Part shown: piece after piece, positions 43,719 through 64,000 of the stretch | Layout of the letters: every line of letters begins with the position of its first letter | How positions within the stretch are numbered: position 1 is the first letter of the stretch | DNA from: Sipunculus nudus | Lineage: Eukaryota; Annelida; Sipuncula; Golfingiida; Sipunculidae | Reading direction: 5' to 3' | Assembly: GCA_026874595.1 (NCBI GenBank) | Contig: CM049322.1 | Span: 52,913,386-52,977,385 of the forward strand | DNA: 64,000 nucleotides | Notes under the pieces: model-generated | Told to the model about the DNA's origin: nothing | Seen by the model: only the letters and a program-made list of their open reading frames with translations | The model's database searches: none | Translations under genes and position numbers: made by a program

Positions 43719-44254
43719 ATTGTACATGACATATCATATGTCATCACTTTCTGTACATTCAATAAACGTCTGTGTAACTAGAAAAGGCATAGCGTTTGTG
43801 TTATTTTACTCTTGGTGTAACAGGTTCACGTCTCGTGACTGTGCTGGTACGTCTGAGCGTGACAGGGGCTGTCTGCGTGAGTGTTTCCTGATGTGTGTGA
43901 TGCAGGACTGCTGTATTGTCAGGTGGTTTTTTTTAGATGTTATGTGTCATACACGTTGCCACATACAGACTGCTCATGTTTACGTAAATACATATAACTA
44001 TACATATATACATCCAATACCCGTACATGGAATCGTTACGAAAAAAAATCACTAAAAACAAATGATAGAGTAAAGGAAGCGGGCTGTATGATTAACATTC
44101 GATGGTATTGCGCAACTTTACTGTAGACACGCCGTGACCCCATGTGTCGTGACTCAGTTTGTAACGAGATATGTTGTTTTCCCTGAACGTGTCAATCACG
44201 TGTGCACCAAAACGGGATGAATTACGCTCGCACGCTCATGTCAGCAGTGTATGT

Positions 44255-44290
44255 GTCAGTCACGTGACATAACAAGATAACGTATATAAG
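44255..44290 (+). promoter_or_regulatory. TATA promoter P1 of the gene island
   Basis: A palindromic TCACGTGA lies 12-20 nt upstream of a strong TATATAAGG at 44,283-44,291. The same arrangement occurs at 47,005-47,037 (GTCACGTCACAAG then TATATAAGG). Transcription would start near 44,311-44,315. The first exon has no long frame, fitting a leader. Confidence 0.65.
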
Positions 44291-44412
44291 GGGCTGCAGG
44301 GCAGCGTTGCTTGCACACTGCCTGATGCTGGCGAAGCGAATACAGCAACTGGGTGGACCCATTGACACATACACTGATCATTCGTACGGATTGCGTGCCA
44401 GTCGAATAAAAC

Positions 44413-44524
44413 GTGAGTGACCTTTTTTGTACATAGACGGATGTAGTGACTGGACGACCGTGTCCATTATTTGTGCGGATCATGTGACGTAATGATGTGA
44501 CGCGTGTCCATTTATTAATTGCAG
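44413..44524 (+). other. 5' leader intron after promoter P1
   Basis: GTGAGTGACC at 44,413 and TTATTAATTGCAG ending at 44,524 define a 112-bp GT-AG intron. The upstream exon would run from about 44,312 to 44,412. The donor is close to consensus and could also serve more distant acceptors. Confidence 0.55.
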
Positions 44525-44556
44525 TTTTCTTTGTATTGCCATTACACGAGTCAGAC

Positions 44557-46011
44557 ATGTCAGACATGTGGCCTCCGGTCGATCTTGCTGTTCATGACAC
44601 AGGGCCCGACGGCATCATGGGTACATATTTCGGGATGGCGCACAAGGACGGAGCGGTGGTCTCTTTTGACACTGACCCGTCAGATCGCGTCCCCCGACTC
44701 TTCCACGAGACTGTATTTTTCAAACTGTCCGGCGCCACGTTTAACACGTACTGGGTTTGCACGGACGGCAAAGGACGAGTTTCACAGTTTGTTTTCGACA
44801 TAAGGGACTGGCGACAGGAAATCGATCACGCAGGCGGGGAGGTTCACCTCATGGTGGGACGTTACATCCAATGCGAACACGGATTGGCCTTAGTTTGGGT
44901 GCCCGTTCGCGCATCGAGGTCGTCAATGGAGCCCGCCAGTCTTAGACCGTTTTACGTGACGCCTTATGCAGTGGCACTAAACGTGGTGTACGTTGGTTGG
45001 GATCCGGAAGGGGTGGTCAAAAGAGATTCTGCTTGGTCGTGGCTCAAAAGGCAGCCTCCAATGGCGTACTACCAGGACGCTCCGGTGCAGTGCACGGACG
45101 CGGGAGGGCGGGTTTTCTGTGAATACCTGGCCATGGAAGGTCTGATGTCTTTTGCGATGACTTGCTTTCCTGAGCGTTCGCGTCTGCGGGCAGTATTCGG
45201 AGCAGTTGAACCCAAATGGGCTTTCGGCCACTGTTGGGTGGAGCGTGAACGGGCCACAGGGAGAAAATACACCGTTTGGTCAGATGCCAGTTATCCCGAG
45301 GGCCTCAGACGCGGAACTACCGTACTTGAAAAGTACGAGTGGAGAGGTACACCGCCAGGTGGTGTAAAGATGAAACGGAGTTTGGACGGAGACCACCCTG
45401 TCACACTGATCGCAACCCTGCACGACCCTCAAGATAATGACGTGCGTATTTCTGGGGAACCTCCCACATCGATTGACTGGGCTGCAAACGTGCATCATGT
45501 CTGGGATGTCAGCTTGGGACAAAAAATCATGTCGAGGCATACCAGAATGGACCCATACGTGCGATTTTACAGCACATTTGCTCCCGGAAAAGACGTTAGT
45601 CTGTGGGACAGGGTACATATCGTTAAAACCGCTGCAACGTTCTCTCCGAGTGAAGTGATGAACCCTGAGCTGTATGTAGCGAGCGTAGTGAAAACGGTCG
45701 AGCTGTTCGACCAATACAGATCTGGTTTTGGTTGTCCTCGGGGACTATCTGTTTATATGAATATAATCAAAAAGTGCAAAAGGGACTGGCCGGACGAGGT
45801 CGAATGCATACGCGATGGTCGCGTGGGACGAAAAGAGTATGTGTTGCACAGGACTGATACGCCGGGAGGTAATCGGTATCCGTCAGGTGGAAGCATTCGC
45901 AAGCAACCATCGTGCAACATGTATCGGATGCATAAAAGGTTTGTACATGCCATATTACCGAGCTTTTCCACAGTTTCCATAGAACAAAAAGATGTGCCAG
46001 TACTGATATAA
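44557..46011 (+). CDS. Large 484-residue island protein, unknown
   Basis: The largest frame in the window. The start is taken as ATG 44,557 because the open frame upstream crosses a splice acceptor at 44,524 and has no other ATG. The product is Trp- and Cys-rich and globular throughout (YFGMAHKDGAVVSFDTD near the start, VFCEYLAMEGLMSFAM, FGHCWVERERATGRKYTVW), without an evident signal peptide, membrane segment or coiled coil after the chosen start. No family was recognised. It is the first gene after promoter P1 and the most GC-rich gene here. Possible ATAAA polyadenylation signals follow at about 46,075. Real gene with high confidence; function unknown. Confidence 0.75.
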   Translation: MSDMWPPVDLAVHDTGPDGIMGTYFGMAHKDGAVVSFDTDPSDRVPRLFHETVFFKLSGATFNTYWVCTDGKGRVSQFVFDIRDWRQEIDHAGGEVHLMVGRYIQCEHGLALVWVPVRASRSSMEPASLRPFYVTPYAVALNVVYVGWDPEGVVKRDSAWSWLKRQPPMAYYQDAPVQCTDAGGRVFCEYLAMEGLMSFAMTCFPERSRLRAVFGAVEPKWAFGHCWVERERATGRKYTVWSDASYPEGLRRGTTVLEKYEWRGTPPGGVKMKRSLDGDHPVTLIATLHDPQDNDVRISGEPPTSIDWAANVHHVWDVSLGQKIMSRHTRMDPYVRFYSTFAPGKDVSLWDRVHIVKTAATFSPSEVMNPELYVASVVKTVELFDQYRSGFGCPRGLSVYMNIIKKCKRDWPDEVECIRDGRVGRKEYVLHRTDTPGGNRYPSGGSIRKQPSCNMYRMHKRFVHAILPSFSTVSIEQKDVPVLI

Positions 46012-47004
46012 GAAGGGTATGACTTTAGCAAGCCGTGATCATACGTGTGCACATTTTGTTATGAAGTATATTATTGATAAAACTTTACAGAGTGTTATAT
46101 GAGTAAAGATAACGTATGACCGAGTGTTTCTTTTATTACAGGTGAAGGTGTATATTATGAGAACGTATGAGGTCAGCTGACGCTGCCAGAACACGCAGAG
46201 AAACACATGAGCGGAGATAACACGCGACGCATATTGACAAATATATTGAATTGGAAATCTCAGTATTAGACGTGCGACAGTTAGGCCTTCTGTGTGCTTT
46301 AACTTGCCAAACACGTTCGTTCATTGACGTTGGGCTATATCAAATGCACTTAGACACCAAAGACATGTACGTGTTACTAATGATCGAGATTTATGAGAAA
46401 GCTTGACAAACAGCGAAGAAAAAGAGGGGGGGGGGGGTGTTTGCTACCAAGACGTGTGCTGCACTCATGTTGCATCTGATGTACGTCGCAGCTCAGGATA
46501 TGTGTCCATTATAAAATTTGTTATTCATCCTTGACTGTTATGTGTGGCTGTGAGCCCATTAAGAAATCCACACACACGCCGGCTGCATCCCTCGACTGAT
46601 AGAAGTGGGTTTTATTATGAGCTTGGTACCGGCATCCGTCTGCGAAACATGTCCGTTCATATTTTTGATGGGTAGACGACCACATGTCATGATGTGTCTG
46701 AAGACATGTACACTTATAAACCTTCATTCAAACGGGAATCAAAGACATATGAGCATTGGTCATTGTGTCTGTTCTGCCTGGCGTACTGAAGCTCTGAAAG
46801 CATGCTTCTTATGATACCACGTGTTGTACATCCGAAGTAGACATACACGTTACCTCTTTGTCACGTGAACCACTTACCGACCAGACATGCCGATATATAT
46901 ATTCATATATTTATATAATATCAACAAACACAATAATACGTAGGTCTGTGCACATTCCGGAACCATTTAGGGTTTCACCGGATGTCACTCTGGCTCTTTG
47001 TATG
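46012..47004. other. Spacer with poly-G and an empty splice acceptor
   Basis: At 46,130-46,141 TTCTTTTATTACAG precedes an ATG (46,157) that closes after seven codons, so an acceptor exists without a frame worth calling. A G-run lies at about 46,426-46,437. Overlapping opposite-strand frames at 46.5-46.8 kb cannot be ranked and are not called. Confidence 0.4.
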
Positions 47005-47037
47005 TGTCACGTCACAAGCTAAATTGTGTATATAAGG
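47005..47037 (+). promoter_or_regulatory. TATA promoter P2 of the gene island
   Basis: TGTCACGTCACAAG followed 17 nt later by TATATAAGG (47,029-47,037). It shares the CACGT box, an AAG/AA-rich spacer and the identical TATA core with P1. Downstream lies an ATG-free leader exon of ~185 nt ending in a GTGAGT donor at 47,248. Confidence 0.65.
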
Positions 47038-47247
47038 ACCCTACTCGCAACAGTGCAATCACTCTCGCTTAGAGACATACCACTGCAAGTGAACAGCAGC
47101 AAGGGACTTATACCGTAGCACACGGATACTAGTATAGAAGCAGTATAGGACTTCACTGAAGCAATTTACAGGCGTGAAGGATAGACAGAAGAAGCGAGTG
47201 AAGAATAAAGAGTATACTTACAACAAAAAGCGAGCAAGAAATCAAAA

Positions 47248-47399
47248 GTGAGTACATTTATTTTATCGTTCAACACATTTAGTTTACTGTAAAAGGTGTT
47301 CATCTCTTACTGATGTACATTCTGATCCAACTGTTCGGCAATGTCATATGTGATATATGAAAACGGTTTTTGTAAAACCAGTGTTGCCTTTGGTTGTAG
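47248..47399 (+). other. Candidate leader intron after promoter P2
   Basis: The donor AAAAG/TGAGT is good (GTGAGT at 47,248). The best nearby acceptor is CCTTTGGTTGTAG ending 47,399, but it lies inside the next reading frame, after its ATG. The same donor could instead join acceptors farther right, such as 48,131 or 48,532. Which pairing is used cannot be told from sequence. Confidence 0.4.
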
Positions 47400-47866
47400 T
47401 GGCACAGCCCCCGAACAGCGCACCATCCCGACCCCAAGGCAACCATGTTCCGGGTACCTTACAAGGCCAGTGGTCGCCTTTGTTGCCCGTGGGTGCGCAG
47501 TATAATGCGCAACAGCATGTTGACGGTTTACCGGTGAACTTTCGCCGAAACCTGCCTCTGGTGCCGTACAGGCCAGAAACGTACCTGGAACGTATGATTC
47601 AAGGGAATGTTCAGATGTCGGACCAGATGCGCCAGCTACTGACGACAACTGTGACATTATTCATGTCATTATTCCCTTACACGTCACACGTGTTCGACCC
47701 TACCCCGAACAGCAACCCCAGGCAGACAGGAGATCACATCTTGGTGTTCATCAGGAACATTCTTAACCGGAACCGGCCGGACAGAGAAACCCACATAATG
47801 CTGTTTCATTTCCTGGTTAACACGTTTGTCGGCGCATATTTCCAATCGATGCTGGCAGGTCAGTGA
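47357..47866 (+). CDS. Pro-rich 169-residue island protein
   Basis: ATG-initiated frame of 169 codons. The N-terminal third is Pro/Gln-rich and probably disordered (VVVAQPPNSAPSRPQG); the C-terminal half is predicted helical (SDQMRQLLTTTVTLFMSLF and HIMLFHFLVNTFVGAYFQ). The latter faintly recalls the helical core of the downstream family. A splice acceptor at 47,399 falls inside the frame; if used from the P2 leader, the ATG is removed and the next in-frame ATG is far downstream, so the true start is uncertain. A second, overlapping 54-codon frame begins at 47,341. No known family. Confidence 0.55.
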   Translation: MKTVFVKPVLPLVVVAQPPNSAPSRPQGNHVPGTLQGQWSPLLPVGAQYNAQQHVDGLPVNFRRNLPLVPYRPETYLERMIQGNVQMSDQMRQLLTTTVTLFMSLFPYTSHVFDPTPNSNPRQTGDHILVFIRNILNRNRPDRETHIMLFHFLVNTFVGAYFQSMLAGQ

Positions 47867-48089
47867 GGCACACGCCTTGATGCCTGTTGAGTTGCAGTTG
47901 CTGTTAAGTTGTTGCTTTATATATTTTTTTTTATTGTTATCGTTTTGTTTGTGCTGACTAGCATTGGAAGAGTACCTTGTCATTTATATTTCAGGGGGCA
48001 GTTGATAAATGTAATGATTTGAATATGGTTTGTGATAGGGATACTGGCATTCACCATATGTGGTTGTCGTTTCCTGTTGTAGATTATCA

Positions 48090-48251
48090 ATGGTGACTGT
48101 GTGTTCTTACGGTGTTGTTGTTTTATTGCAGAGCAAAGCGAAGACATATAAAGAAGAGAGACACAAATCGTTCCGGATATCACAGCTAAATGTGAGTACA
48201 ATATTGTTTATGAAATCTTATTGTACAGACCGCATTTCTGACAGTTTGTAA
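48090..48251 (+). CDS. Small 53-residue frame behind a splice acceptor
   Basis: CCTGTTGTAG ends at 48,082 and ATG follows 7 nt later, opening 53 codons (hydrophobic start VCSYGVVVLL, then basic KAKTYKEERHK). The same stretch also holds a self-contained exon, 48,132-48,191, bounded by TTTTATTGCAG and GTGAGTACA. Either this is a small gene in the acceptor-ATG style, or the inner exon is a second leader segment spliced onto downstream genes. Both could be true. Confidence 0.35.
   Translation: MVTVCSYGVVVLLQSKAKTYKEERHKSFRISQLNVSTILFMKSYCTDRISDSL
48132..48191 (+). other. Candidate internal leader exon
   Basis: A 60-nt segment flanked by a strong acceptor (TTGTTTTATTGCAG) and a strong donor (GTGAGTACA). 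The next acceptor is 48,532, eight nt before the ATG of the following gene, giving a 341-nt intron. It has no ATG of its own. It could form part of a multi-part leader shared by rightward genes. Confidence 0.5.
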
Positions 48252-48540
48252 ATAATGTTGACAAACAAATATTAATAGTACTATAATAATACTCAGTCAT
48301 ATTTATATGGTGACGGTAATCGAACGACATCCTGTTACTACGTAATCATGCACAGTATAATTTACACGGCGGCGGAATATTGACGTGTTACTACACGTAC
48401 CTGCATCAAGTAAAACAAGAGATTCAACATCCTACAACTGAATGTAAATATCGGTCATCAACACGATATAGACATAACACATGGACAATTGTGCAGGACG
48501 GTCGTGATGATGTCGTTTGTATGTAATTGTAGTTCTGACA

Positions 48541-49014
48541 ATGGAACACAACGATATTCTTGTGGAAGATGTACTTGGAAAGTTGAAATTAACTGCAGAA
48601 ACGTGTCTACGTATTACTCCAAACAGCGACAATGACACGACGTTAAAGCAATATGTAGAATGTATTTCTATGTTCCAACAGTGCTTTGATCAATTGTTGG
48701 GGTGTGTCATATCATACCAAACGTATCCGTGTGAAAATATGGATATGGATCAAATACTTGCGGACCTGTCGTGTATCGCAAATAACGTGCTATCGTTGTC
48801 ATGTTCTGAGCTTGTTGTGAAAGCACTTTGGGCGGTGTATAAGCGGTTGTGCGCTGTACACCGGAGATACGTACTCGTTATAGAAAACATGCAAACATTA
48901 GTATGTGTCGTTGATGAGCATAAACTGCAATGCCAAGAAATGAACCAGATGACACAGTGCTTGCTGGCTGATTTGTGGCAGACATATCCGGACTTTGTTA
49001 CATGTATCCAATAA
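48541..49014 (+). CDS. Helical Cys-rich 157-residue protein
   Basis: Start chosen at ATG 48,541 because a 3' splice site (GTAATTGTAG) ends at 48,532, 8 nt upstream. The protein looks all-helical with many Cys (CISMFQQCFDQLLGC, LSCIANNVLSLSCSELVVKALW). The stretch SELVVKALWAVYKRL resembles the DLVYPALCKLSGY core of the paralog family downstream, so it may be a distant member (inference). No signal peptide or membrane segment. Unknown family otherwise. Confidence 0.6.
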   Translation: MEHNDILVEDVLGKLKLTAETCLRITPNSDNDTTLKQYVECISMFQQCFDQLLGCVISYQTYPCENMDMDQILADLSCIANNVLSLSCSELVVKALWAVYKRLCAVHRRYVLVIENMQTLVCVVDEHKLQCQEMNQMTQCLLADLWQTYPDFVTCIQ

Positions 49015-49179
49015 TCATGGCCGGCACGACGTGAACCAATTAAACTGTGACTCGACGTAATAGACAGTGACATTGGTTTTGTATTTGTTACATTATATGT
49101 GTCATCATTACTCAGGTCGCGTTATAATTATTGCAGCACGCGCGATACATTCATAGAAACTACAGACATTTGCGAAAAG

Positions 49180-49764
49180 ATGAACTCATTAAGAATGAAC
49201 GTGAATGACTCCCCAGATGAATACGACCCAGAGAAACATGAAATAGTGGGCAAACAAATGTTAGACGACATGGCGAAACTGGCCAAGGAGGCGGAAGAGC
49301 GATCATCGAAACTGGTCAAGGATACAGAACAGCGATCATCCGATGATGAAGATGAGGGTATGGCTTTAAAAGAGTTCGCTACATACATCAAGGATCTGGT
49401 TGCCGTAATATCTCAGATCCCTGGGTACATTCAAAACTTCGAGGCAAGGGATGGACAACAAGAATATAACGGCTTCGTAGTAGATGGCGGATACGTGAAG
49501 ACGTTCAAGAAGATGTATTCCATCGTCGGCGTAATGCGTCGCAGGTCATGCAGTGATATATTGTGGCTGGCCTTATGTCAATTGTCGGCGTACATGTTAT
49601 GGGTCAGGACCCTTTACATACGTAGGAGCATGGTTCACTGTAAGTCGATACCATCTGAAATGATGTGGCACCATCACCATTGGGAGGAGTTCGCACAGGG
49701 GGTGTTAGGTTGTGCTTTATGGTTAGAGAAGAAGGCTGCAGCGGACGAAAATGGAAGAAAGTAA
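49180..49764 (+). CDS. Acidic helical family member A (194 aa)
   Basis: First clear copy of a tandem family (others at 50,135, 52,334 and 53,659). A splice acceptor TTATTGCAG ends at 49,135 followed by CACGCGCGATAC, matching CACGCCCGTTAC in sister copies. The codon aligned with the sister start reads ATA, so translation most likely begins nine codons later at 49,180. The conserved core is present: DDEDEGMALKEF, then ISQIPGYIQNFEA, CSDILWLALCQLSAYMLWV and WEEFAQ. The basic tail of the other copies is missing. AATAAA follows at 49,961. Function unknown. Confidence 0.65.
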   Translation: MNSLRMNVNDSPDEYDPEKHEIVGKQMLDDMAKLAKEAEERSSKLVKDTEQRSSDDEDEGMALKEFATYIKDLVAVISQIPGYIQNFEARDGQQEYNGFVVDGGYVKTFKKMYSIVGVMRRRSCSDILWLALCQLSAYMLWVRTLYIRRSMVHCKSIPSEMMWHHHHWEEFAQGVLGCALWLEKKAAADENGRK

Positions 49765-49960
49765 CAGTGTTATGTTTACAAAAGGACTTATGGCTGAACG
49801 GACTTGTGGATAAACATGTAAATATGCCAATATATTTACCCATTGCAGATGTTTGGTTTTTGTAAGTGACTGTAGATAGTGTGATCAGTATATCGATCTT
49901 AATATCCCCGTATTCCCTCAATTAGAATACGTGATTGTCGTATCTTGTATATCTCATCAG

Positions 49961-49966
49961 AATAAA
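49961..49966 (+). terminator. Polyadenylation signal of family member A
   Basis: CAGAATAAATGATTG, about 200 nt after the stop codon and ~150 nt before the splice acceptor of member B. The equivalent GGAATAAATGATG recurs ahead of the other copies. Confidence 0.5.
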
Positions 49967-50134
49967 TGATTGTAAGTTGTATTAATGTCTTTTAGTTTTT
50001 TTCATGAATCACGTGATATGGTTGTTTCACTGTACTGAGAGTTTGAATGTTGGCATGCTAATTTGGATGGTATTTTTCCTGATACCCTTCCCTTAATGGC
50101 GTTTGTGGATTATTACAGCACACCCGATACGATA

Positions 50135-50947
50135 ATGGAAACGACAGAAGTTAGCGGAGAGATGAGCCCCCAAAAGATTAGCGCCCCGGACCCTCCAATG
50201 AATGGGCAGGCCAACCAGGACAGTCCAATTATCGGCCAAACACAAGAGGAACAGAAAATTGACCCTCCAGGGCACGACCAAGCCAATCAGGACCCTCCAA
50301 AGAGCTTCCGGCAGAAGCACGAAATGTGGGTCAATAAAGAAATGGAGGACCGCATACAAGAACTCAAGGGTCTGGTAGACATTGCCGAAAAGCGAATCAT
50401 AGAATCGCCTGATGATGATGAAGAGTGTAGGGAAGAGTGTAGGGGTTTAAAGGATTTTGCTGATAAGACCAAAAATCTTATTGATGTAATATCAAAGTTC
50501 CCTGGACATATACAAAAGTTTGAGGCAGATGCCATGGTTGGACCAAAAGATGGGAAACGCGTCGTGAAAGACGGTGCATACAAACTGACGTACAAGAGAA
50601 TGAAAGCTATCATCGACGCAATGAGAAAAACGCCGTGTCAGGATCTGGTGTATGATGCATTCGGTATATTATCTTTTTACATAGAGGCGATCCTGATCCT
50701 TTACACAGACATGCAGGACAGGCTGCGTGACTGCATACCCGAAGGGGAACTTCCTGTGGTACTAGTGGCACCGTGTTTTGTGCGGGAGTACCACAGTTGG
50801 AACTGGGAAAAACTCGAGCGATGTCAGTCATGGTTAGATCATGAGGTATCAGATGAGGTACAAGAGGCAATGGTTAAACAATCGAGAAAGAAAAAACGCC
50901 GCGTGACGTCTACCGTGCAGGATCAATCCAAAACCAAAACAGTTTAA
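50135..50947 (+). CDS. Acidic helical family member B (270 aa)
   Basis: ATG 50,135 lies 16 nt after the acceptor GGATTATTACAG. The N-terminus has a repeated Asp-Pro-Pro motif (DPPMNGQANQD, DPPGHDQANQD, DPPKSF), probably disordered. The family core follows: IIESPDDDEECRE, VISKFPGHIQKFEADA, CQDLVYDAFGILSFYIEAI and WEKLERCQSWLDHE. The tail is basic (KQSRKKKRRVTSTVQD), like a nuclear localisation signal. The stop (TAA at 50,945) falls where sister D has a Lys codon; in-frame sequence after it stays open and basic for about 18 codons, so this copy was shortened by a point change. Function unknown. Confidence 0.7.
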   Translation: METTEVSGEMSPQKISAPDPPMNGQANQDSPIIGQTQEEQKIDPPGHDQANQDPPKSFRQKHEMWVNKEMEDRIQELKGLVDIAEKRIIESPDDDEECREECRGLKDFADKTKNLIDVISKFPGHIQKFEADAMVGPKDGKRVVKDGAYKLTYKRMKAIIDAMRKTPCQDLVYDAFGILSFYIEAILILYTDMQDRLRDCIPEGELPVVLVAPCFVREYHSWNWEKLERCQSWLDHEVSDEVQEAMVKQSRKKKRRVTSTVQDQSKTKTV

Positions 50948-51144
50948 ACAGGTCGCGTCAACAAGAAACGCAAGAGGCGTGGCCGAAAAAATAACAAAAA
51001 GTAAACAAAAGAAAAACTTTCATCAACAAAGACATATTTCAACAAAGACATGTACAAATATTTCGTTTGCTCTCGTGATTTTGTTGTATACATTGACATT
51101 ATCAGTAAATGGTATCGTATCTGTTTGCAGCTTGTGTTGGCACG

Positions 51145-54887: not shown

Positions 54888-54893
54888 AATAAA
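54888..54893 (+). terminator. Polyadenylation signal of member D
   Basis: CGGAATAAATGATGTAACTT, 372 nt after the stop. It is followed at once by the CGTCTCC..ATGTATCGCATG block and, 191 nt later, the acceptor of the next gene. Confidence 0.5.
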
Positions 54894-56100: not shown

Positions 56101-56403
56101 TAATAACCTGAAATAAACGTTTATGGTACATGTTACATATGTGTCATTCTCGTCTACACGTATACGTGTTAATGAATGTGTGAGACGGTTGTCCTCGTGT
56201 CACAAAATATGGATTCTGCCACTACCACCACCTCCCCCTCCCTCCACCCCTTTTGCCCCCTTCCGTTATAACAATCTTGCATTCTCCGACTGGTCGCCCG
56301 CCTCATATCACACAAACTTTCTCACTGCAATGATGATAAATACGATGAAGCGACGTGACGATGTGAACGTGTATCTATTTGTACTGATGATAGATACTTG
56401 TGT

Positions 56404-56952: not shown

Positions 56953-57310
56953 ACGGCGCCTGGTTTGCGGGAGAAAAAGATGAATATGTCGATCTGTTTT
57001 TTTTTTTTTTTTTTGGCTTGGGGAATACACAGCTAACATCAGGCAAAGTTCAAATAAACGGACATGAATGTGCAGGTGTGTTTGTTGTTTATGATTATGA
57101 TTGTTACATAACAACTCCTTCTCTCGGCGTCTTCCGTTTCACACTTGCCCCCCCCCCCCTTTCCCCTCTCCCCCCGTCTTCCCAAATCCGGAACATTGTC
57201 GCTGTAAGAAATGTGCGCAGTTGATTGTTATTTTAACATAAACATTTATAACCTTCTGGTTTCGTCAGCCAGCCGTATGTACATGTTACGTCATGTGTGA
57301 GCACATTGAT
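56953..57310. other. Spacer with homopolymer runs
   Basis: Contains a T-run at about 56,997-57,014 and C-runs at about 57,149-57,172. No gene. It begins the convergence zone between rightward and leftward genes. Confidence 0.5.
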
Positions 57311-57313
57311 GTG

Positions 57314-57385
57314 GGTGTTGTGGCTCAATGGATAGAGCACTGGTTTCCGAAGCAAGGGGTTGTGGGTTCGAATCCCGCCAGCACC
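57314..57385 (+). tRNA. tRNA-Arg (anticodon CCG)
   Basis: A full cloverleaf can be drawn. The acceptor stem is GGTGTTG with CAGCACC (one G-T pair). The D-arm is GCTC..GAGC with A-box TGGCTCAATGG. The anticodon loop TTCCGAA gives CCG. A 5-nt variable loop precedes the T-arm GTGGG-TTCGAAT-CCCGC with a consensus B-box. The anticodon stem has one G-A mismatch. No CCA is encoded and a T-run follows at about 57,396, as for polymerase III genes. It sits between the two opposing gene blocks. It could be a resident host tRNA or one carried by the island. Confidence 0.85.
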
Positions 57386-57611
57386 TTCATGATACATTTT
57401 TCTCCATCTGTTTGTCATTTATACAATTTTCTTTGTGTAAGTTTTGTCTATCACGTCAGTTGTTCGTGTTCATAACAGACAATCCACTCGGCATTACTTT
57501 TTTGTTGCGTTATATCTACTTGGCGTGTCGTGTCTGTTTATATAGCACAGTCACCGCCAGATGGCAGTATATGCACCCTTGCCGATGTTTTTATTTTTTG
57601 TTTTAAAACCA

Positions 57612-57707
57612 TATGTTGGATGTATGTCTTTCACGTATGTTGGATGTCTGTCTTTAGCGTATGTTGGATGTCTGTCTTTCGCGTATGTTGGATGTCTGTC
57701 TTCCTCG
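57612..57707. repeat. 24-bp tandem repeat, four units
   Basis: Four consecutive units of TATGTTGGATGTCTGTCTTT followed by a variable CACG/AGCG/CGCG (the last CCTCG). The pattern is in frame with multiples of three, but the surrounding frame is not otherwise supported. Confidence 0.9.
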
Positions 57708-58294
57708 TGTTACAATTTGTTTTTTTCAAAGGGATAGTGTCGTTCAATGTCTGATATTAAGGCCGGGTACGTTTTCATATTTCCTGAGGCTATGTGGACT
57801 ATAACAACGTACACTGTACACCAGCTTACAAAACCACACATTTACATATAAGCACACACGTATATATCTGCACAAAGGATTGGTAATCTTCTAATATGTC
57901 TTCAGGTGATGAGGGCGATCGTAAACATACCCAAACACACCGCAAGCAAAGCACATTTTACACATAAACGCACACACATACATCAGCATACACACGGAAA
58001 CATGAAATGAATAATGAGACATGTTGTCAGGTATACATAAATATATTCCGTTCACTTAAACATTTTACATTTATACAGGTTTACATATATCAGATATATT
58101 TCATATCATCGATAAACATACATGGCAAGCGTGCAAATGTCATAAAGGTCATGTGTAGTCACAGCGAATTGTCCCACAATATACAGAAGCGTGACAGACG
58201 ACAGCGAATTGTTCCACAATATATATATATATATAAATATATATATATGTACCTTTTCGATAAAATGTTGTTTGTACAACGTGCGTGGAAATGG
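57708..58294. other. Convergence-zone spacer
   Basis: AT/CA-rich sequence with a ~25-bp direct repeat (CAGCGAATTGTNCCACAATA) at about 58,158 and 58,201 and a short TA tract. The open frame on the plus strand (58,007-58,483) overlaps the better supported minus-strand gene and looks like a chance frame. Confidence 0.45.
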
Positions 58295-58603
58295 TCACGG
58301 GTACAGGTTTATAAGAAAACCCAACAACTCTGCAGGCTTCCAGCGCAGCTTTGGATGAATTTTCCGTTGCATATCAGATGTGAACATGAACTGTCGCTCG
58401 GGTGTATGATTGTGTTTTTTTGTACCAGGTGCCCGTACACGCTCCAGCCTCACTCTCAGGCATTTGTCAATCCGGCAAGGTGACTGTATACGCTCCAGTC
58501 TCACTTTAAGGCATTTATCAATTCGGCCATCTAACCGAATGCATACTTTCAGCCCCTCTCTTCGCGTTGACATGTAGCACCTGCATATCGCTTTTGGGTT
58601 CAT
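58295..58603 (-). CDS. Small basic repeat protein (102 aa)
   Basis: The acceptor TTATGTTCCAG abuts ATG 58,603, fixing the start although the frame is open farther upstream. The product is very basic and contains a 17-residue direct repeat, RIDKCLKVRLERIQSPC, then RIDKCLRVRLERVRAPG, encoded by a 51-bp duplication. Preceded by RCYMSTRREGLKVC. No known family, signal peptide or membrane segment. It is the last of the leftward genes, with the same acceptor-ATG junction as the others, which is the main reason to call it. Confidence 0.5.
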   Translation of the reverse strand: MNPKAICRCYMSTRREGLKVCIRLDGRIDKCLKVRLERIQSPCRIDKCLRVRLERVRAPGTKKHNHTPERQFMFTSDMQRKIHPKLRWKPAELLGFLINLYP

Positions 58604-58881
58604 CTGGAACATAAGCAAATGATAATGTAAAAGTACACTTGTATAAGAAGAAGAACAAAACCTGTGGGGGGGGCAGCAAATCATGCAAACATGTGAAACA
58701 TTGCCAGATGCTCGGATGGAATGTCCCATTTGACCCTGAAATAAATAAACACATATGTATAACGACACAACACTATCATATTACAACATATATATATTGT
58801 TTATATATATATATTTATATATATATATATCAATATACAACAAGTATATTAACACCAACACACATACAGACAGATGGACGG
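58604..58881. other. Short spacer with TA tract
   Basis: Contains TA-rich sequence at about 58,788-58,832 and a G-run near 58,665. It forms the 3' region of the RING gene and the 5' intron region of the small basic gene. Confidence 0.4.
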
Positions 58882-59601
58882 TCAAAACATATTTACAAAA
58901 CGACACGCCACCCACCAGATGTATATCTTCACCACATCAGTGCGTTTGTTGGGTACCCTGCATGTCGGACAATGGACCTCCTCGCGGGAAGTGGAACGGG
59001 ACGTGGAACGGAACATGTTGTCGCGCAAGCGATTTATAAACGCTTGAAAGTCGTTTCTATTTTCATTGTAGGAGAACACCGCCATTATACATCTGTGACA
59101 AAACATGTGTCCGCATATTTTTAGGAAACAGTCCACGGTGTTCTCCAAACAAATTGGACACCGGAAGCGACTTAGCCTTTCCTGGGCATCCCTTTCTTTA
59201 CTTTGAAGCTGGGCAATCATGGTCTGAGCGTGTGCGAGCTGCTCCTCCACACTGGAAACGACAACGCCTGGATCTGAAACGTTTGCCGAACCTCTGCAAG
59301 CAGAAACTGTCGCCGAACGGATTGGTGTGTCAGGTGCTGCCGAAACTGTTTCCGCATTGCCACCCGTATATGGAGGAAACATCGCTGCTTCGGTGGCGCC
59401 CGTCCTGACGTGTCGAAGCTTTAACCTTTTGGGTGCAGGCAAAATGTTATCAGATCGGGTCTGACCTCCCTGGGTTGATGTATCATGTTCCGATGGAGGC
59501 GCAGGGTCCACGGGAGGTCGACGTTCAGAAGTCAATTGATCAGAGGCGTCTGTGTCGTCAGCGACATTTTGGGACGGGTTGGTTGCTGTTATGGAATTCA
59601 T
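58882..59601 (-). CDS. RING-finger protein, probable E3 ligase (239 aa)
   Basis: Start ATG 59,601 is 3 nt after the acceptor ATAATTGCAG. Residues 1-110 are low-complexity (Pro/Ser/Thr), residues about 118-146 a likely coiled coil (VEEQLAHAQTMIAQLQSKER), and residues about 148-214 a C3HC4 RING: CPIC, KICGHMFCHRC, then after ~39 residues CPTC. RING domains recruit ubiquitin-conjugating enzymes, so the protein probably ubiquitinates host or island-encoded targets. The frame is continuous with the upstream 410-residue gene apart from a single TAA inside the acceptor tract, so a spliced fusion is conceivable. Domain call is very firm. Confidence 0.85.
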   Translation of the reverse strand: MNSITATNPSQNVADDTDASDQLTSERRPPVDPAPPSEHDTSTQGGQTRSDNILPAPKRLKLRHVRTGATEAAMFPPYTGGNAETVSAAPDTPIRSATVSACRGSANVSDPGVVVSSVEEQLAHAQTMIAQLQSKERDAQERLSRFRCPICLENTVDCFLKICGHMFCHRCIMAVFSYNENRNDFQAFINRLRDNMFRSTSRSTSREEVHCPTCRVPNKRTDVVKIYIWWVACRFVNMF

Positions 59602-59610
59602 CAACTGCAA

Positions 59611-60843
59611 TTATTCCCGACCTGCATCAAACGGGCTCTCAGTACGCGATTGTGACGAGGTCGAAGACGGGGCGGGTGATGACGGCCTTGTGGTATATCG
59701 CCTTTTTCTCCTGGGAAAGCGGCCATTCCAATTCATGTCAAGATGCAACGCTACGTTGCATTTATGTGAACCGGTGATCCCTGAAACACGACCTGGTTGA
59801 TTAAAGTCCATCTCTGCCGGCAGGAAATCCCGGAGACACCTATCGGCATCTGTCTGCCTCGCCACCTGGACGCAAAACCTCAGGAGTAAGAGGCGTTTAA
59901 ATGCTTTCCTCCGTGTTGTCTCCCCAGGGCGATAGATATGACCGAGCACGCGTCGGACGTCCTGTTTCTTATAGATGTCTTCGACTTCAGTTTTGCTCAA
60001 GGGGGCGTCTATCATACCGTGTTTTTTTAGTAATTTCATTAAAAGCCTAGTTAAACGTATACTTCCGACCAGGTCGGCCACCAAGCTGTCCCATTGCGTG
60101 GCATCAAACAGGGTGTATGCGATCCTGAACTCCGGCTCATACCAAACGTCTTTCTCGATATACGCTAAAACAGCCTCACGTACGCGTTGGTATTCACGTT
60201 CTTTTGAAACCTCCCGCGCATCCAAACCTTCCTCACCCCCGTCCGCTTGGTCTGCATTTTCCGCCCCTCCTTCTTGCTGCGCATGCGGCTCAGGACGTGT
60301 TACGTCATTGTATCCGTCTCCCGGCATGAATTGTTCTTCTTCACACTGTGTAAACCGCATGATGTGTTCATCGTCATCAGACACCAACACGATCGGGTAG
60401 TAACGGTGCGGGACCACATTGTTGAAACAGTCTTTTAATATGCACATTTCAAATACCTCGCTTAACAGGGCACATGCGTCGGACATGCCTCTTTGGAAGA
60501 GCCTGTGGTATAGCTCCAATATGTTTATATTGAACAAAGAACAGTTCACGTATAAAGCAGTGGTAATGGAGCGCGCTTCCGATTTTCCACTTTCCCTATA
60601 CGACTGCACGTACTTGAGGTCATCCCTGTGTGGCAGCAGCGTAGGCAGATCTATCAGATTGACGTCTGTGGCTAAAGCGAGGAGATCAACACGGAGGCTC
60701 AGAGCATCTTCAACCTCCATGTAGTTCAGAAACAAGCCTCTGATGCTTAACGCTTCCGACTCGTTCCGCTGGCGTTCGGTGCCGATGTATATAACGTCCT
60801 CCTCTTCTATGGACGAACTGTCGGAATGTTCAGTCTGTTCCAT
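59611..60843 (-). CDS. 410-residue protein with CARD-like segments
   Basis: ATG 60,843 lies 4 nt after the acceptor TTATCATTTCAG. The N-terminus is acidic (HSDSSSIEEEDVIY). Residues about 40-140 are helical (LSLRVDLLALATDVNLIDL). A middle acidic, disordered stretch (about 180-225) follows. Residues about 255-340 resemble a CARD: LTRLLMKLLKKHGMIDAPLS, EVEDIYKKQDVRRVLGHIYR, AFKRLLLLRF. The C-terminus has a basic RRKRRYTTRP and a Ser/Pro tail. The stop lies in the RING gene's splice acceptor. A leader exon carrying hairpins, ending at a GTATGC donor near 61,143, could be its 5' end. The fold is a hypothesis; the gene is well supported. Confidence 0.7.
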   Translation of the reverse strand: MEQTEHSDSSSIEEEDVIYIGTERQRNESEALSIRGLFLNYMEVEDALSLRVDLLALATDVNLIDLPTLLPHRDDLKYVQSYRESGKSEARSITTALYVNCSLFNINILELYHRLFQRGMSDACALLSEVFEMCILKDCFNNVVPHRYYPIVLVSDDDEHIMRFTQCEEEQFMPGDGYNDVTRPEPHAQQEGGAENADQADGGEEGLDAREVSKEREYQRVREAVLAYIEKDVWYEPEFRIAYTLFDATQWDSLVADLVGSIRLTRLLMKLLKKHGMIDAPLSKTEVEDIYKKQDVRRVLGHIYRPGETTRRKAFKRLLLLRFCVQVARQTDADRCLRDFLPAEMDFNQPGRVSGITGSHKCNVALHLDMNWNGRFPRRKRRYTTRPSSPAPSSTSSQSRTESPFDAGRE

Positions 60844-60847
60844 CGCT

Positions 60848-61143
60848 CTGAAATGATAAGGAAACACACATGAGACGTGTTATGGCAAAAGAAGAGGGGG
60901 GGGGGGGTGTACATGGTATGTATGTGTAATGTTGCCTGTGATGACATAGCATCATACGTAAACAGAAGAGAACAGATGACAAGTCAATACAAACTAAGAT
61001 AAAACATAATTACTGTTTCTTTACAACAGAAACACACCGACAGCGCTGTACGTATCTTAGAACATATTATTTTGTACACAAACATGACTACATATCCTGA
61101 TGAAAAACGTACATGCACTGCAAAAAAAACAACAGCATACCTG
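60848..61143 (-). other. Candidate 5' intron of the 410-residue gene
   Basis: On the minus strand a GTATGC donor (CAG before it) near 61,143 and the TTTCAG acceptor ending at 60,848 would define an intron of about 295 nt. It contains a G-run (plus strand 60,896-60,906) and another acceptor-like tract near 61,120. Confidence 0.35.
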
Positions 61144-61147
61144 AACA

Positions 61148-61396
61148 TCCGGCGATGGTTTCAGCCGGTGAGGGCGGCGGGGACCATCACTCCGACACTC
61201 GTTCTGGGTTCTTTTTGAGAGATGACAAGAAAGCCGGAGCATCTGCCCGCCCGCCCTCCGGCTCCAGCTTTCTTGTCATCTTTTAGACGTCTTGGATAAT
61301 TACTGCTTGCTTGGTGATCTGTGGTGATGGTGAAGAAACTCAAGGGCGTCTGCCAGCCCGCCGCCGGCCCTTTGGATTCCTTCAGCATCAACCACA
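61148..61396 (-). ncRNA. Cluster of GC-rich hairpins (structured leader or small RNAs)
   Basis: Three inverted repeats lie in a row. 61,221-61,280 has 14-bp perfect arms (GATGACAAGAAAGC and its complement) with a C/G-rich loop. 61,320-61,396 has longer imperfect arms (TGTGGTGATGGTGAAG with CTTCAGCATCAACCACA). 61,148-61,196 is weaker (GATGGT with ACCATC). The second and third share the loop phrase TCTGCC.GCCCGCC and equivalent arms whose bases differ but still pair (ACAAG/CTTGT versus TGAAG/CTTCA). They could be pre-miRNA-like, a structured 5' leader of the 410-residue gene, or DNA cruciforms. Strand is a guess. Confidence 0.5.
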
Positions 61397-61731
61397 TGTT
61401 AAAAGGATTGTCCATTTACATACAGGTAAACAAAATAACATACCCTGTATCAAATATACAATGACCTTTATTCTGATAACATAACAGATACACAGATCTG
61501 GTGTATACAATATATACATAAAAAGCTAAAAAAAAATGACATATACAAAACTTTTGAAATGTTGAACGTTTCATTGTACAGGAGATGAAACGTTTACCAA
61601 TTTTTAATACGTTTTTGGCATTATCAACCCCAATTTTCAATTACAGTTTTCCATGTTTTTACAAAGTTTATTTACATTTCCAACCCAATTTCAATTAAAG
61701 TTTACCACAGTTCATATTTTTTTTTTACACT
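61397..61731. other. Spacer and outer duplication edge
   Basis: AT-rich spacer. On the minus strand AATAAA occurs near 61,466 and 61,666, both possible 3' ends for leftward transcripts. The segment from about 61,655 matches 62,073 onward as part of a tandem duplication. Confidence 0.45.
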
Positions 61732-62400
61732 TTAACCCCAGTTTTCAATCACCCCCCATAATTCCGGGCAACGTTCTGTGAATTTACGTTTTTGGTGCAA
61801 TATAGGTCTTTTCACATGCGGGTTGAAGATAAATTTACCAATAAAATCCCTCCCCAGTACACCCGACGCACTGGGTAATTTCCAGTCATATACAATATTC
61901 ATATCCACGTTATTATAGAAACATTTCCCCAGTGAGTCCTCGAAGAGCACTTGTATGTGTCTTTTTTTTTATACGGATGCACTGTAATATATACATGTTA
62001 CACCTGTACAATATTTATGTAGAAATGATATATACAACCAATTTGAAATGTTCAATTAAAGTTTACAAAGTTTTTACAAAGTCTATTTACATTTCCAACC
62101 CAATGTTCAATTACAGTTTATCATATTTTACAAGTTTGTTTTTTACACTTCACCCCCAATTTTCAATCACCCCCCACACATGCTGGCAACGCTCTGTGAA
62201 TTTACGTTTTTGGTGTAATGTAGGTTTTTTCACATGCGGGGTGAAAATAAATTTACCAATGAAATCCCTCCCCAGTACACCCGACGCACTGGGGAATTTC
62301 CAGTCATATACAATATTCATATCCACCTTATTATAGAAACATTGCCCCAGTGCGTCCTCGAAGAGCACTTGTACGTGTCTTTTTTTATATGGGTGTACTG
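61655..62400. repeat. ~415-bp tandem duplication
   Basis: Two adjacent units (about 61,655-61,975 and 62,073-62,395) share AAAGTNTATTTACATTTCCA, the TTTCAATCACCCCCCA block and the coding end of the LGRDF-protein gene. Divergence is small. Confidence 0.7.
61732..61950 (-). pseudogene. Partial duplicate of the LGRDF-protein gene
   Basis: Seventy-two codons closely match the C-terminal half of the gene at 62,150-62,602 (FEDSLGKCFYNNVDMNIVYD, then SGVLGRDFIGKFIF and the same VIENWG end). The N-terminal half is absent, and no splice acceptor with ATG precedes it. The 3' flank (ACAAAGTTTATTTACATTTC) is shared with the full copy, so a ~420-bp tandem duplication made it. Few substitutions suggest recent origin. 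Probably not translated. Confidence 0.65.
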
Positions 62401-62602
62401 CGGTCCCTCTGTGGGCACCCCCACAAGCTCTGCATGGCTCTCGCACTAATAGTGGTTTGTGCAGAATGTCGTCCCACATCGGGGTGTACCAGAAGTTCTG
62501 CGGCAGAAACACCTTCATGTCAACCATAGAGATTGGACTCTCTATGTCCAGGATGAAATGCTTGCACCCGATGCCATCCACAGTTACGTTGTAGTATGTC
62601 AT
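62150..62602 (-). CDS. LGRDF-motif protein, retropepsin-like? (150 aa)
   Basis: ATG 62,602 lies 4 nt after the acceptor CGTTTGTAG. The product begins TYYNVTVDGIGCKHFILDIE, carries a CRACGGAH cluster near residue 57 that could bind a metal, and ends with SASGVLGRDFIGKFIF and a basic/aromatic tail. The pattern of an early FILD strand and a late VLGRDFI strand recalls retropepsin-type aspartic proteases, which have (I/L)LGxDF near the C-terminus. Here the position expected for DTG reads DIE, so activity is doubtful. The gene call is firm, helped by the preserved duplicate next door; the family call is speculative. Confidence 0.6.
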   Translation of the reverse strand: MTYYNVTVDGIGCKHFILDIESPISMVDMKVFLPQNFWYTPMWDDILHKPLLVREPCRACGGAHRGTAVHPYKKRHVQVLFEDALGQCFYNKVDMNIVYDWKFPSASGVLGRDFIGKFIFTPHVKKPTLHQKRKFTERCQHVWGVIENWG

Positions 62603-62931
62603 CTTTCTACAAACGAAACACAAACTCTCATAAACAGATCATACAAATTCTCTCTCTCTCTCTATGTCTCATTTAAATAGGATAGAGAAGATATGCATGC
62701 CATGCATTATTTTTTTACTGACGTTAATCCCTGTTTATCACACGTATATACCATAACTGGAGGTTACCACGAGCCAGTGGTAATTGGTTAATCACATAAA
62801 CTGATTATGCAACAATATCAGATACATATATCAGATACATAAATATAATTATACAAGCTTTCCTTTCACACTAAAAACATATATCATTATTACGGCCCAG
62901 TACAGGGACGCAGACTAAAAAACTACAATAA
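62603..62931. other. Spacer
   Basis: Contains a CT-repeat (plus strand 62,648-62,663), which on the minus strand is GA-rich, and TTTAAATA near 62,674. No gene recognised. Confidence 0.4.
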
Positions 62932-63003
62932 TTAATTGTTGTCAGATGTGCGTTCCTTCGTCTGCCATTCCGTCTCGTTATCAGCCCATTTGTACCCGAT
63001 CAT
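62932..63003 (-). CDS. Micro-ORF of 23 codons behind a splice acceptor
   Basis: The acceptor TTTTCAATCAG is followed after 6 nt by ATG 63,003 and 23 codons (MIGYKWADNETEWQTKER then TSDNN) before TAA. The size is far below usual gene thresholds. It is reported because the junction has exactly the acceptor-ATG layout of the verified-looking genes and the peptide is hydrophilic and compositionally ordinary. It could be a microprotein or a coincidence. Confidence 0.25.
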   Translation of the reverse strand: MIGYKWADNETEWQTKERTSDNN

Positions 63004-63009
63004 TATATT

Positions 63010-63416
63010 CTGATTGAAAACATAAAACAACCACAAACCGTACACAAAGGTAAAAATGTCAAATGTGCATACTTACATCAGCGGTGTCTGCGGGTGGTCT
63101 TGTATCTGTGATTTAATCCTATGTAATCTCTGCTCTAAAAAAAAAAACAGTACAAAATATCTTCAATCAATTGTCCTTCGTCACCTTTCCAAATATGGTT
63201 ATAACACATGTTCATACAGTTGCTGCTCGTACCACATATGGTTCTTCATTTTACAAAATATATACACGCGGCACCTCCTATTCCAGAAAATGTTTATTGT
63301 AAAGGGTTAACGCGTAATCTGGCGCGCTTTATCCCCCTTTCAACGAAATATTCTTTCGGAGGCCGTCGACATGTCACCCTCCTTCGTGCACTCATACCAC
63401 CATCTGTATATGCCTC
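63010..63416. other. 3' region of the rightmost gene
   Basis: On the minus strand AATAAA lies near 63,291, about 125 nt beyond the stop codon of the next gene. No other feature was recognised; the plus-strand frames here are Cys/Tyr-rich shadows. Confidence 0.4.
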
Positions 63417-63947
63417 CTAAACACCAAACTGCCAAGGTACTGTTGCACAAACACAGTTCCCCTGTTTGACAAGTCTGTTCACGTCCTTTGATTTGTCGGG
63501 CAAGTCTACACGGCACCACAGCTGCTGTATGATCTCGTGAGGCCGGGTCGGTCCCCAATACCTGGACACGTAAAGGGCACCTCTGTGCACCCAGCAAATC
63601 ATGTCGGGCCACTCGGATATTGTCTTATATTGTTCGAGGTCGACGTCTCGGTGAAACGACGCGTGCAAACGCATATCTCTCGTTATGACCTTGCACTTTG
63701 TGCACCTCAGCACGGGAGGCTCCTTGCACATGTCGCGTATGAATTCCTCGCCGGTGCACTTAGCGTTGCACTTCCTGCAAAATTGAGTCGTCGAAGCTGT
63801 TTCTATCAACTCGTCTAATATTATGTCCGGCACGGTCAACCAAAATATCTGCGGGTTGTACCGCTCGCATAAGTATTCCTTTGTCATTGTGTACAGTGGT
63901 TTAGGATTGTACACAGGGTTTATTTTCGTCTTTTCACTCAGCATCAT
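63417..63947 (-). CDS. Zinc-ribbon-like protein (176 aa)
   Basis: ATG 63,947 lies 4 nt after the acceptor CTCGTTTCAG. Residues about 58-85 form a candidate zinc ribbon with two CxxC knuckles (FCRKCNAKC and LRCTKC, about 20 residues apart). The N-terminus (KEYLCERYNPQIFWLTVPDI) and C-terminus (WPDMICWVHRGALYVSRYW) are Trp-rich and globular. Zinc ribbons of this type occur in nucleic-acid-binding and transcription proteins, but no specific family was recognised. AATAAA follows near 63,291 on the same strand. Its own leader exon would lie beyond the window. Confidence 0.65.
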   Translation of the reverse strand: MMLSEKTKINPVYNPKPLYTMTKEYLCERYNPQIFWLTVPDIILDELIETASTTQFCRKCNAKCTGEEFIRDMCKEPPVLRCTKCKVITRDMRLHASFHRDVDLEQYKTISEWPDMICWVHRGALYVSRYWGPTRPHEIIQQLWCRVDLPDKSKDVNRLVKQGNCVCATVPWQFGV

Positions 63948-64000
63948 TGGTCTGAAACGAGCGCAAAATCCACCTTTACTGTCAGCGCAACGCTAACTGT

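What the first reader, a model, noticed from the sequence alone, without database searches (positions are those of the whole stretch)
44250..64000. Compact virus-like gene island in animal DNA with no hallmark gene visible
About 17 short frames, two opposing gene blocks, tiny spacers and paralog expansion contrast sharply with the gene-poor, repeat-rich 37 kb to the left. Content is regulatory in flavour: RING, CARD-like, Cys clusters and acidic/basic nuclear-type proteins. None of the proteins was recognised outside the RING domain. This could be an endogenised large DNA virus (a malacoherpesvirus-like agent is one idea), an unrelated new element, or a fast-evolving host immune cluster.
Basis: partly seen in the sequence, partly recalled or inferred. 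Interest (0 to 1): 0.9.

Follow-up and report, generated by a model that had tools for sequence, protein, structure and literature searches.

The report
Herpesvirus-derived giant jumping element, 50-odd copies
The odd gene cluster is one broken piece of a herpesvirus-like genome that also carries a jumping-gene enzyme and sits at over fifty places in this animal's chromosomes, most of the copies checked still looking intact in the genes examined.

Summary
The island is real but is only a fragment: the right-hand arm of a dispersed element of at least about 177 kb. Its 484-aa marker gene (window 44557-46011) recurs full length 53 times in this 1.43 Gb animal genome, 95-100% identical, 52 of 53 without a stop. 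Hallmarks absent from the window occur in other copies: herpesvirus terminase (PF02499, up to 106.9 bits, 48 near-full of 60 rows), glycoprotein B (PF00606, 1.2e-19; 53 full-length of 57 rows) and a Mutator-like (MULE) transposase with a FLYWCH finger (46 full-length of 75 rows). 36 of 53 copies hold all four genes in one order and orientation. The right terminus is sharp in the two copies compared. The window copy is broken at 36546, not 44250. Eight compared copies differ under purifying selection (pN/pS 0.16). I read it as a Teratorn-like herpesvirus-transposon fusion with a MULE transposase. Not shown: left terminus, terminal repeats, target-site duplication, movement, host name, Malacoherpesviridae membership. 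PF00136 found no multicopy DNA polymerase.

The parts
36546..64000 (+). Part of the dispersed herpesvirus-like element held in this window: broken at its left in this copy; by inference it continues to the right beyond the window
   Evidence: 9 of 9 other copies match 36546-43058 or further; 7 of 7 match 43057-47508; relatives of the genes at 62150 and 63417 lie in copy B with further genes to the right (L033). The stretch 47509-62149 was not compared with other copies
36546..44250 (.). Element DNA without frames of 140 aa or more; T/C-skewed from 38 to 43 kb; 28-bp tandem repeat 37295-37432
44283..44290 (+). TATATAAG promoter-like box before the 484-aa gene
44557..46011 (+). 484-aa gene of unknown function; marker used for counting copies
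   Evidence: 53 full-length of 68 rows; pN/pS 0.16 among 8 copies; no protein or PDB match
47029..47036 (+). TATATAAG promoter-like box; a donor-like site follows at 47246
47357..47866 (+). 169-aa frame, unknown
48541..49014 (+). 157-aa frame, possible distant member of the paralog family
   Evidence: E 0.066
49180..49764 (+). Paralog 1 (194 aa)
50135..50947 (+). Paralog 2, basic C end
51145..51708 (+). 187-aa frame, probable diverged paralog
   Evidence: E 0.02, collinear over 110 columns
52334..53146 (+). Paralog 3, acidic N part, basic C end
   Evidence: 80% identical to paralog 4
53659..54516 (+). Paralog 4, acidic N part, basic C end
55085..55945 (+). 286-aa protein directly after a high-scoring splice-acceptor motif; CARD-like fold suspected, not shown
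   Evidence: mean pLDDT 44.8; no Pfam
56404..56952 (+). 182-aa Cys-rich frame
57313..57388 (+). tRNA-Arg(CCG)-like gene inside the element
   Evidence: 58.6 bits
58882..59601 (-). RING-finger protein, 239 aa
59611..60843 (-). 410-aa protein, unknown
61214..61287 (.). Near-perfect hairpin, pre-miRNA-like
   Evidence: z -5.1 and -5.05
61315..61401 (.). Second pre-miRNA-like hairpin
   Evidence: z -3.4 and -3.7
61717..61972 (-). Partial 91% duplicate of the 3' part of the next gene
62150..62602 (-). 150-aa frame
   Evidence: a 150-aa relative in copy B, L033
63417..63947 (-). 176-aa Cys-rich frame
   Evidence: a 217-aa relative in copy B, L033

Best explanation
The island is the right-hand, probably accessory and regulatory arm of an endogenous herpesvirus-derived mobile element of at least about 177 kb. 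In the copies sampled the element has, from left to right, a herpesvirus terminase, glycoprotein B, a MULE transposase with a FLYWCH zinc finger beside a C-type-lectin protein, CARD-RING proteins, and then the arm seen in the window. Shown: the herpesvirus genes, the copy number, the conserved gene order, mostly open frames of four genes, a right terminus that is sharp in two copies, and the break of the window copy at 36546. Inferred: that the element's own transposase recognises its ends and moves the whole viral genome about the host chromosomes as a giant transposon, while the viral genes may still allow replication or packaging. Also inferred: that the RING, CARD-RING, hairpin-RNA and acidic/basic paralog genes act on host ubiquitin, death and gene-expression pathways.
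For: 53 full-length copies of the 484-aa gene of 68 rows; 27 places on each strand among 54 tallied, on 16 of the contigs C1-C17. gB: Pfam 1.2e-19; 53 full-length of 57 rows. Terminase: PF02499 up to 106.9 bits, 48 near-full of 60 rows, 0 of 14 control genomes. Transposase: MULE 4.7e-11 and FLYWCH 1.3e-7, 46 full-length of 75 rows, beside 44 of 53 marker copies at a median of -39.6 kb. 36 of 53 copies hold all four genes in order. Right terminus: homology of copies A and C stops at the same base, unrelated flanks follow; 26 of 41 rows for the terminal 288 bp are 99-100% identical and 34 of 41 end at base 287. pN/pS 0.16 among 8 copies.
Against: The left terminus was not reached; terminal inverted repeats and target-site duplications were not shown. 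Among the 41 rows I saw by eye none that I could read as an inverted left end, but only 40 of 117 candidates were scored. 9 of 53 marker copies lack a full-length transposase at the expected place. No multicopy DNA polymerase B by PF00136. The major capsid protein was not searched and the protease search did not complete. gB and terminase found no relatives in the protein and viral collections. Nothing shows present movement or expression.
Confidence: 0.78

Rival explanations
1. A herpesvirus that entered the germ line many times, or was amplified by recombination or segmental duplication, with the MULE transposase as an old nested passenger that plays no part in its spread.
For: Purifying selection among copies fits repeated entry from a replicating pool. 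The termini needed to prove transposition were only half seen. Some neighbourhoods, such as C7 around 27.8-28.0 Mb, hold clustered copies. An integrated herpes-like genome, BelcheriHV-1, is reported in amphioxus, and the section read names no transposase of its own (PMC12373286, section 8).
Against: A right terminus conserved to the same last bases recurs, with unrelated flanks in the two copies compared; the transposase gene sits at the same place beside 44 of 53 marker copies, and 44 of its 46 full-length matches have no stop.
Confidence: 0.18
2. Assembly artefact or contamination: a free viral genome wrongly joined to host contigs.
For: A composition change at the left edge of this copy.
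Against: 53 full-length marker copies, on 16 of the contigs C1-C17 and in both orientations, with small differences and different breaks.
Confidence: 0.02
3. A fast-evolving host immune gene cluster.
For: RING and CARD genes, tandem paralogs.
Against: The same DNA, including non-coding parts, recurs 98.7-99.5% identical in 7 of 7 compared dispersed copies, and the marker gene is linked to terminase and gB.
Confidence: 0.01
4. An endogenous element of a virus group outside Herpesvirales that borrowed gB and a terminase.
For: No family-B DNA polymerase by PF00136; many of the proteins scanned match nothing.
Against: Terminase nuclease and gB together are herpesvirus hallmarks, and the size fits.
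Confidence: 0.06

Closest known systems
Teratorn of medaka and its relatives (PMC5601938 and PMC10175614, passages seen)
   Same: Herpesvirus genome combined with a DNA transposon gene; about 180 kb; tens of copies per haploid genome; two subtypes; frames intact in the copies sequenced; terminase and envelope glycoprotein present.
   Different: Teratorn carries a piggyBac transposase, 18-bp terminal inverted repeats and target-site duplications, belongs to Alloherpesviridae and has a recognised DNA polymerase. Here the transposase found is a MULE with a FLYWCH finger, the left end is unseen, the family is unknown, and no multicopy DNA polymerase B was found by PF00136.
BelcheriHV-1, integrated malacoherpesvirus-like genome of amphioxus (PMC12373286, passages, section 8)
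   Same: Integrated herpes-like genome of comparable size (149.9 kb) and GC (45.7%); one sparse 21 kb block of genes not recognisably similar to known malacoherpesvirus genes.
   Different: [quoted passage not shown] here there are 50-odd dispersed copies, most with one.
Malacoherpesviridae (OsHV-1, HaHV-1; BaHV paper PMC11092209, passages seen)
   Same: Large herpesviruses of invertebrates with several zinc-finger genes.
MULE (Mutator-like) DNA transposons
   Same: MULE transposase domain and FLYWCH finger.
   Different: Recalled: ordinary MULEs are a few kb with terminal inverted repeats; this element is at least about 177 kb and carries viral genes.
Endogenous nimaviruses of crustaceans (PMC10871703, search listing only)
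   Same: Large endogenous DNA viruses, associated with integrases according to the title.
   Different: Another virus family; no gB or herpesvirus terminase (recalled).

Membership tests
Herpesvirales | Herpesvirus terminase (DNA packaging nuclease) | tested here: met
   PF02499 up to 106.9 bits, cut-off 22.8; 48 near-full of 60 rows; 0 of 14 control genomes
Herpesvirales | Glycoprotein B fusogen (recalled as typical) | tested here: met
   PF00606 71.1 bits, cut-off 43; PDB gB entries down to 4.7e-14
Herpesvirales | Family-B DNA polymerase | tested here: not met
   PF00136 gave 9 rows, none of them multicopy; a too-diverged gene is not excluded. I therefore call the element herpesvirus-derived and do not file it as a member of the order
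Herpesvirales | Major capsid protein, portal, capsid protease | not tested
   Protease family search unanswered; the others not run
Herpesvirales | Genome size in the 124-295 kb range (PMC10175614 passage) | tested here: met
   At least about 177 kb from the terminase to the right terminus in copy A; total size not known
Malacoherpesviridae | Closest sequence kinship to OsHV-1 and HaHV-1 | not testable with these tools
   I found no such reference sequences among the tools; gB had no match in the protein collection, terminase none in viral contigs
Teratorn-like herpesvirus-transposon fusions | Herpesvirus core genes and a transposase in one multicopy unit | tested here: met
   36 of 53 copies with terminase, gB, transposase and marker gene in order
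Teratorn-like herpesvirus-transposon fusions | piggyBac transposase | tested here: inconclusive
   The transposase found is MULE with FLYWCH; no search for piggyBac was run and unsampled stretches remain
Teratorn-like herpesvirus-transposon fusions | Terminal inverted repeats and target-site duplications | tested here: inconclusive
   Right end only; the pattern search for left ends did not complete (last try)
MULE transposons | MULE transposase domain | tested here: met
   PF10551 4.7e-11, 43.4 bits, cut-off 27.6
MULE transposons | Long terminal inverted repeats and 8-11 bp target-site duplication (recalled) | tested here: inconclusive
   The terminal 287 bp recurs, also in variants of 87-96%; an inverted partner was not found

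The most novel reading that the evidence does not exclude
A second, independent origin of a herpesvirus that became a giant transposon, this time probably in an invertebrate and with a Mutator-type transposase: a 50-copy population of nearly intact viral genomes that has been dispersing recently in a germ line, under selection, and perhaps with its own DNA polymerase lost or altered beyond recognition, so that transposition or host enzymes replicate it.
Probability: 0.5. Interest if true: 0.95.

Novelty: new variant of a known kind. Interest (0 to 1): 0.88.

Why it matters
Most herpesviruses do not enter germ lines. Teratorn and its fish relatives, with piggyBac, are the known case in which one became a transposon. 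A second fusion with an unrelated transposase, probably in an invertebrate, would show that the virus-to-transposon step is repeatable and not a peculiarity of fish or of piggyBac. It would also put up to about 9 Mb of viral DNA into one animal genome (53 copies times 177 kb, my arithmetic; an upper figure, since 17 of the 53 lack one or more of the four genes), where age, silencing, expression and gene retention can be measured on many copies at once.

Tried and rejected
Homology searches from single proteins led nowhere: Pfam on window frames (RING apart), 5.8 billion proteins for the 484-aa, 410-aa and gB proteins, PDB for two window proteins, IMG/VR for three window proteins and the terminase, phages for the 484-aa protein. 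A CARD fold for window 55085-55945 stayed unproven: single-sequence model, mean pLDDT 44.8. Rfam had no match above its own cut-offs for the hairpins.

Idea weakened: that every gene has a strong splice acceptor before its start. With a crude score only some starts exceed the 90th percentile of all ATGs. With a simple motif, 11 of 14 genes have one within 20 nt against 9.7% of 939 other ATGs, but I had moved four starts with the acceptors in view; with the longest-frame ATGs it is 7 of 14, P 1.5e-4.

Idea rejected: that the place where copy B parts from copies A and C (L032:3793) is the left end of the element. In B too the terminase lies about 20 kb further left, so it is a local difference.

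Idea rejected: seventh paralog at 47357.
Full report
Check of the observation. The island is real and beyond chance: 17 frames of at least 140 aa in 44250-64000 against a simulated mean of 0.55, higher GC and CpG o/e than the left part, a plus block and a minus block, and tandem paralogs. RING is the only Pfam domain above its cut-off among the 15 window frames scanned. The left part looks like host DNA: two exon-like frames with an ILEI domain (PF15711, 1.3e-6 and 1.6e-10) and simple repeats.

What changed the picture. The whole-genome search placed the window at C17:52913386-52977385 of a genome of 1,426,538,692 bp in 153 contigs. It found the 484-aa protein of the island full length 53 times among 68 rows, 36 at 98-100% and 17 at 95-96% identity, 52 of 53 without a stop. 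Seven of seven other copies match 4.45 kb of DNA around it at 98.7-99.5% (in one, L007, in two pieces). Ten-kb stretches upstream of nine copies match the window from 36546-36558 rightwards, 9 of 9, and match one another further left (three of the nine used as queries).

Extent. Sampled probes of copy A (C1) against copy B (C5) are 96.4-99.4% identical at -20, -40, -60, -90 and +20 kb from the 484-aa gene, and do not match at -130, +40, +60, +90 and +130 kb. The miss at -130 kb is not the end: copies A and C match at about -126 and -139 kb, while B differs locally there. On the right, copies A and C stop matching at the same base, followed by unrelated flanks. The terminal 288 bp gave 41 rows: 26 at 99-100%, 14 at 87-96%, one short piece at 81%; 34 of 41 end at base 287; only 40 of 117 candidates were scored. 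From the terminase to the right terminus copy A spans about 177 kb (C1:77657569 to 77834948); the left terminus was not reached.

What it encodes. A 599-aa protein at about -40 kb has a MULE transposase domain (4.7e-11) and a FLYWCH finger (1.3e-7); next to it is a protein with a C-type lectin domain (1.1e-10), with two similar frames beside it that were not scanned. Three proteins at about -20 kb carry CARD (1.4e-11, 5.1e-8, 3e-7), two of them with a C-terminal RING. At about -122 kb lies glycoprotein B: the 603 residues held in L042 match PF00606 at 1.2e-19 and solved gB structures down to 4.7e-14. At about -144 kb lies the herpesvirus terminase: PF02499, 60 rows, 48 near-full at 101.3-106.9 bits, none in 14 control genomes. 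Large proteins of L030, L031 and L032 match nothing in Pfam above cut-off.

One unit. In the whole genome the transposase is full length 46 times of 75 rows, 44 of these without a stop, and gB 53 times of 57 rows, 52 without a stop. For the count I kept only full-length or near-full matches; rows dropped were 15 of 68 (484-aa), 29 of 75 (transposase), 4 of 57 (gB) and 12 of 60 (terminase). Of the 53 marker places, the transposase is present beside 44, gB beside 44 and the terminase beside 43, at medians of -39.6, -121.9 and -144.4 kb; 36 of 53 have all four in the same order and orientation. The window copy is one of the 17 that do not; it has none of the other three at the expected places. 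With partial transposase matches and partial marker places included, 50 of 58 places pair with a transposase.

Selection and age. Among 8 copies of the 484-aa gene, summed over all pairs (not independent), there are 63 synonymous and 35 non-synonymous differences, pN/pS 0.16. The differences therefore arose mostly while the gene was under constraint, in a replicating or transposing lineage. High identity and open frames suggest recent spread; I give no date because no host rate is known. In contrast, paralogs 3 and 4 of the window show dN/dS 1.26 on 14 synonymous and 66 non-synonymous changes.

How it most likely works. Inferred: the MULE transposase, kept open and in place in most copies, recognises the conserved terminus and moves the whole viral genome between chromosomes. 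The two facts that would prove it, a matching left terminus and a target-site duplication, are not in hand. The right-hand arm seen in the window looks accessory: RING, Cys-rich and acidic or basic proteins; two TATATAAG promoter-like boxes, one with a donor-like site after it, and acceptor-like motifs before many starts; a tRNA-Arg-like gene; and two hairpins with z about -5.1 and -3.4 to -3.7 that look like microRNA precursors. In a scan of 90-nt windows of the plus strand of all 64 kb the first hairpin ranks second, after an (AT)n repeat. Interference with ubiquitin, death signalling and gene expression is the natural guess for these genes, and no more than that.

Against the reading. PF00136 found no multicopy DNA polymerase, although malacoherpesviruses have one (PMC11092209, passages). 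By eye a 979-aa protein in L030 has motifs in the order of a family-B polymerase, the third departing from the usual form; the PDB sequence search gave no support. The protease search did not complete and capsid genes were not searched. gB had no match in the large protein collection and the terminase none in viral contigs, so the nearest viral relatives are unknown.

Compared with what is known. The closest system is Teratorn of medaka: about 180 kb, 30-40 and about 5 copies of two subtypes, intact frames in the copies sequenced, piggyBac transposase, 18-bp terminal repeats (PMC5601938 and PMC10175614, passages). The present element resembles it in make-up; the transposase found is not piggyBac, and the terminal-repeat criterion is open. 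An integrated malacoherpesvirus-like genome is known from amphioxus (PMC12373286, passages and section 8). Three full-text searches of the open-licence library listed no title on a herpesvirus fused with a Mutator-like transposase (the first 20 of 25, 12 of 14 and 10 of 197 papers were shown); preprint servers and most subscription papers are not covered.

Verdict. A new variant of a known kind: a Teratorn-like herpesvirus-transposon, high-copy and with mostly open frames in the four genes examined, with a different transposase and probably in an invertebrate. Confidence about 0.95 that it is a dispersed herpesvirus-derived element, about 0.6 that its own MULE transposase drives the dispersal.

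Noticed in passing
window 61214-61287 and 61315-61401: Two adjacent long hairpins with similar GC-rich loops (z -5.1; -3.4 to -3.7) and a weaker third at 61140-61205 (z -1.4 and -1.6); candidate viral microRNA cluster upstream of the 410-aa gene.
   Followed up: partly
window 57313-57388: tRNA-Arg(CCG)-like gene with a T run shortly after it, inside the element between the two gene blocks.
   Followed up: no
window 44557-63947: Splice-acceptor-like motifs just upstream of many start codons (11 of 14 with chosen starts, 7 of 14 with longest-frame starts, against 9.7% of other ATGs); 5' UTR introns or a common leader are possible.
   Followed up: partly
L030:2656-5595: 979-aa protein with, by eye, motifs in the order of family-B DNA polymerases, the third unusual; no database support.
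   Followed up: partly
L028:1049-2212, 5272-5925, 8161-8958: CARD proteins, two with a C-terminal RING, partly in a tandem repeat of about 0.5 kb steps; IAP-like without a BIR match.
   Followed up: partly
L029:3969-8169: Three neighbouring similar membrane-type proteins; the one scanned has a C-type lectin domain, the other two were not scanned.
   Followed up: partly
right ends, L034:4642-4929: The terminal 287 bp exists in variants of 87-88%, 92% and 94-96% to the main form, some with longer right arms, although sampled parts of the element are 96-99% alike; may mean recombination between element lineages.
   Followed up: no
G000 C7 27.79-27.99 Mb: Clustered matches in both orientations, two termini almost adjacent at 27814522-27814928.
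   Followed up: no
window 22109-23984: Foldback structure with inverted arms (92% over 96 nt) and inverted arrays of a 20-23 bp unit; probably a separate non-autonomous element in host DNA.
   Followed up: no
window 15139-15723 and 34226-34918: Two similar exon-like frames with an ILEI domain, likely a host gene or gene pair next to the insertion.
   Followed up: no
G000 C106:39276-40433: One family-B DNA polymerase match in a single frame (142.6 bits, 800-aa open frame) on another contig; contaminant, episome or another virus, not examined.
   Followed up: no
G000 C12:4869484 and C3:44358528: Diverged relatives of the 484-aa gene (39% and 64%) with stops: perhaps traces of older related elements.
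   Followed up: no
window 52334-54516: Paralogs 3 and 4 differ with dN/dS 1.26 (66 non-synonymous, 14 synonymous changes), a weak hint of adaptive divergence.
   Followed up: no
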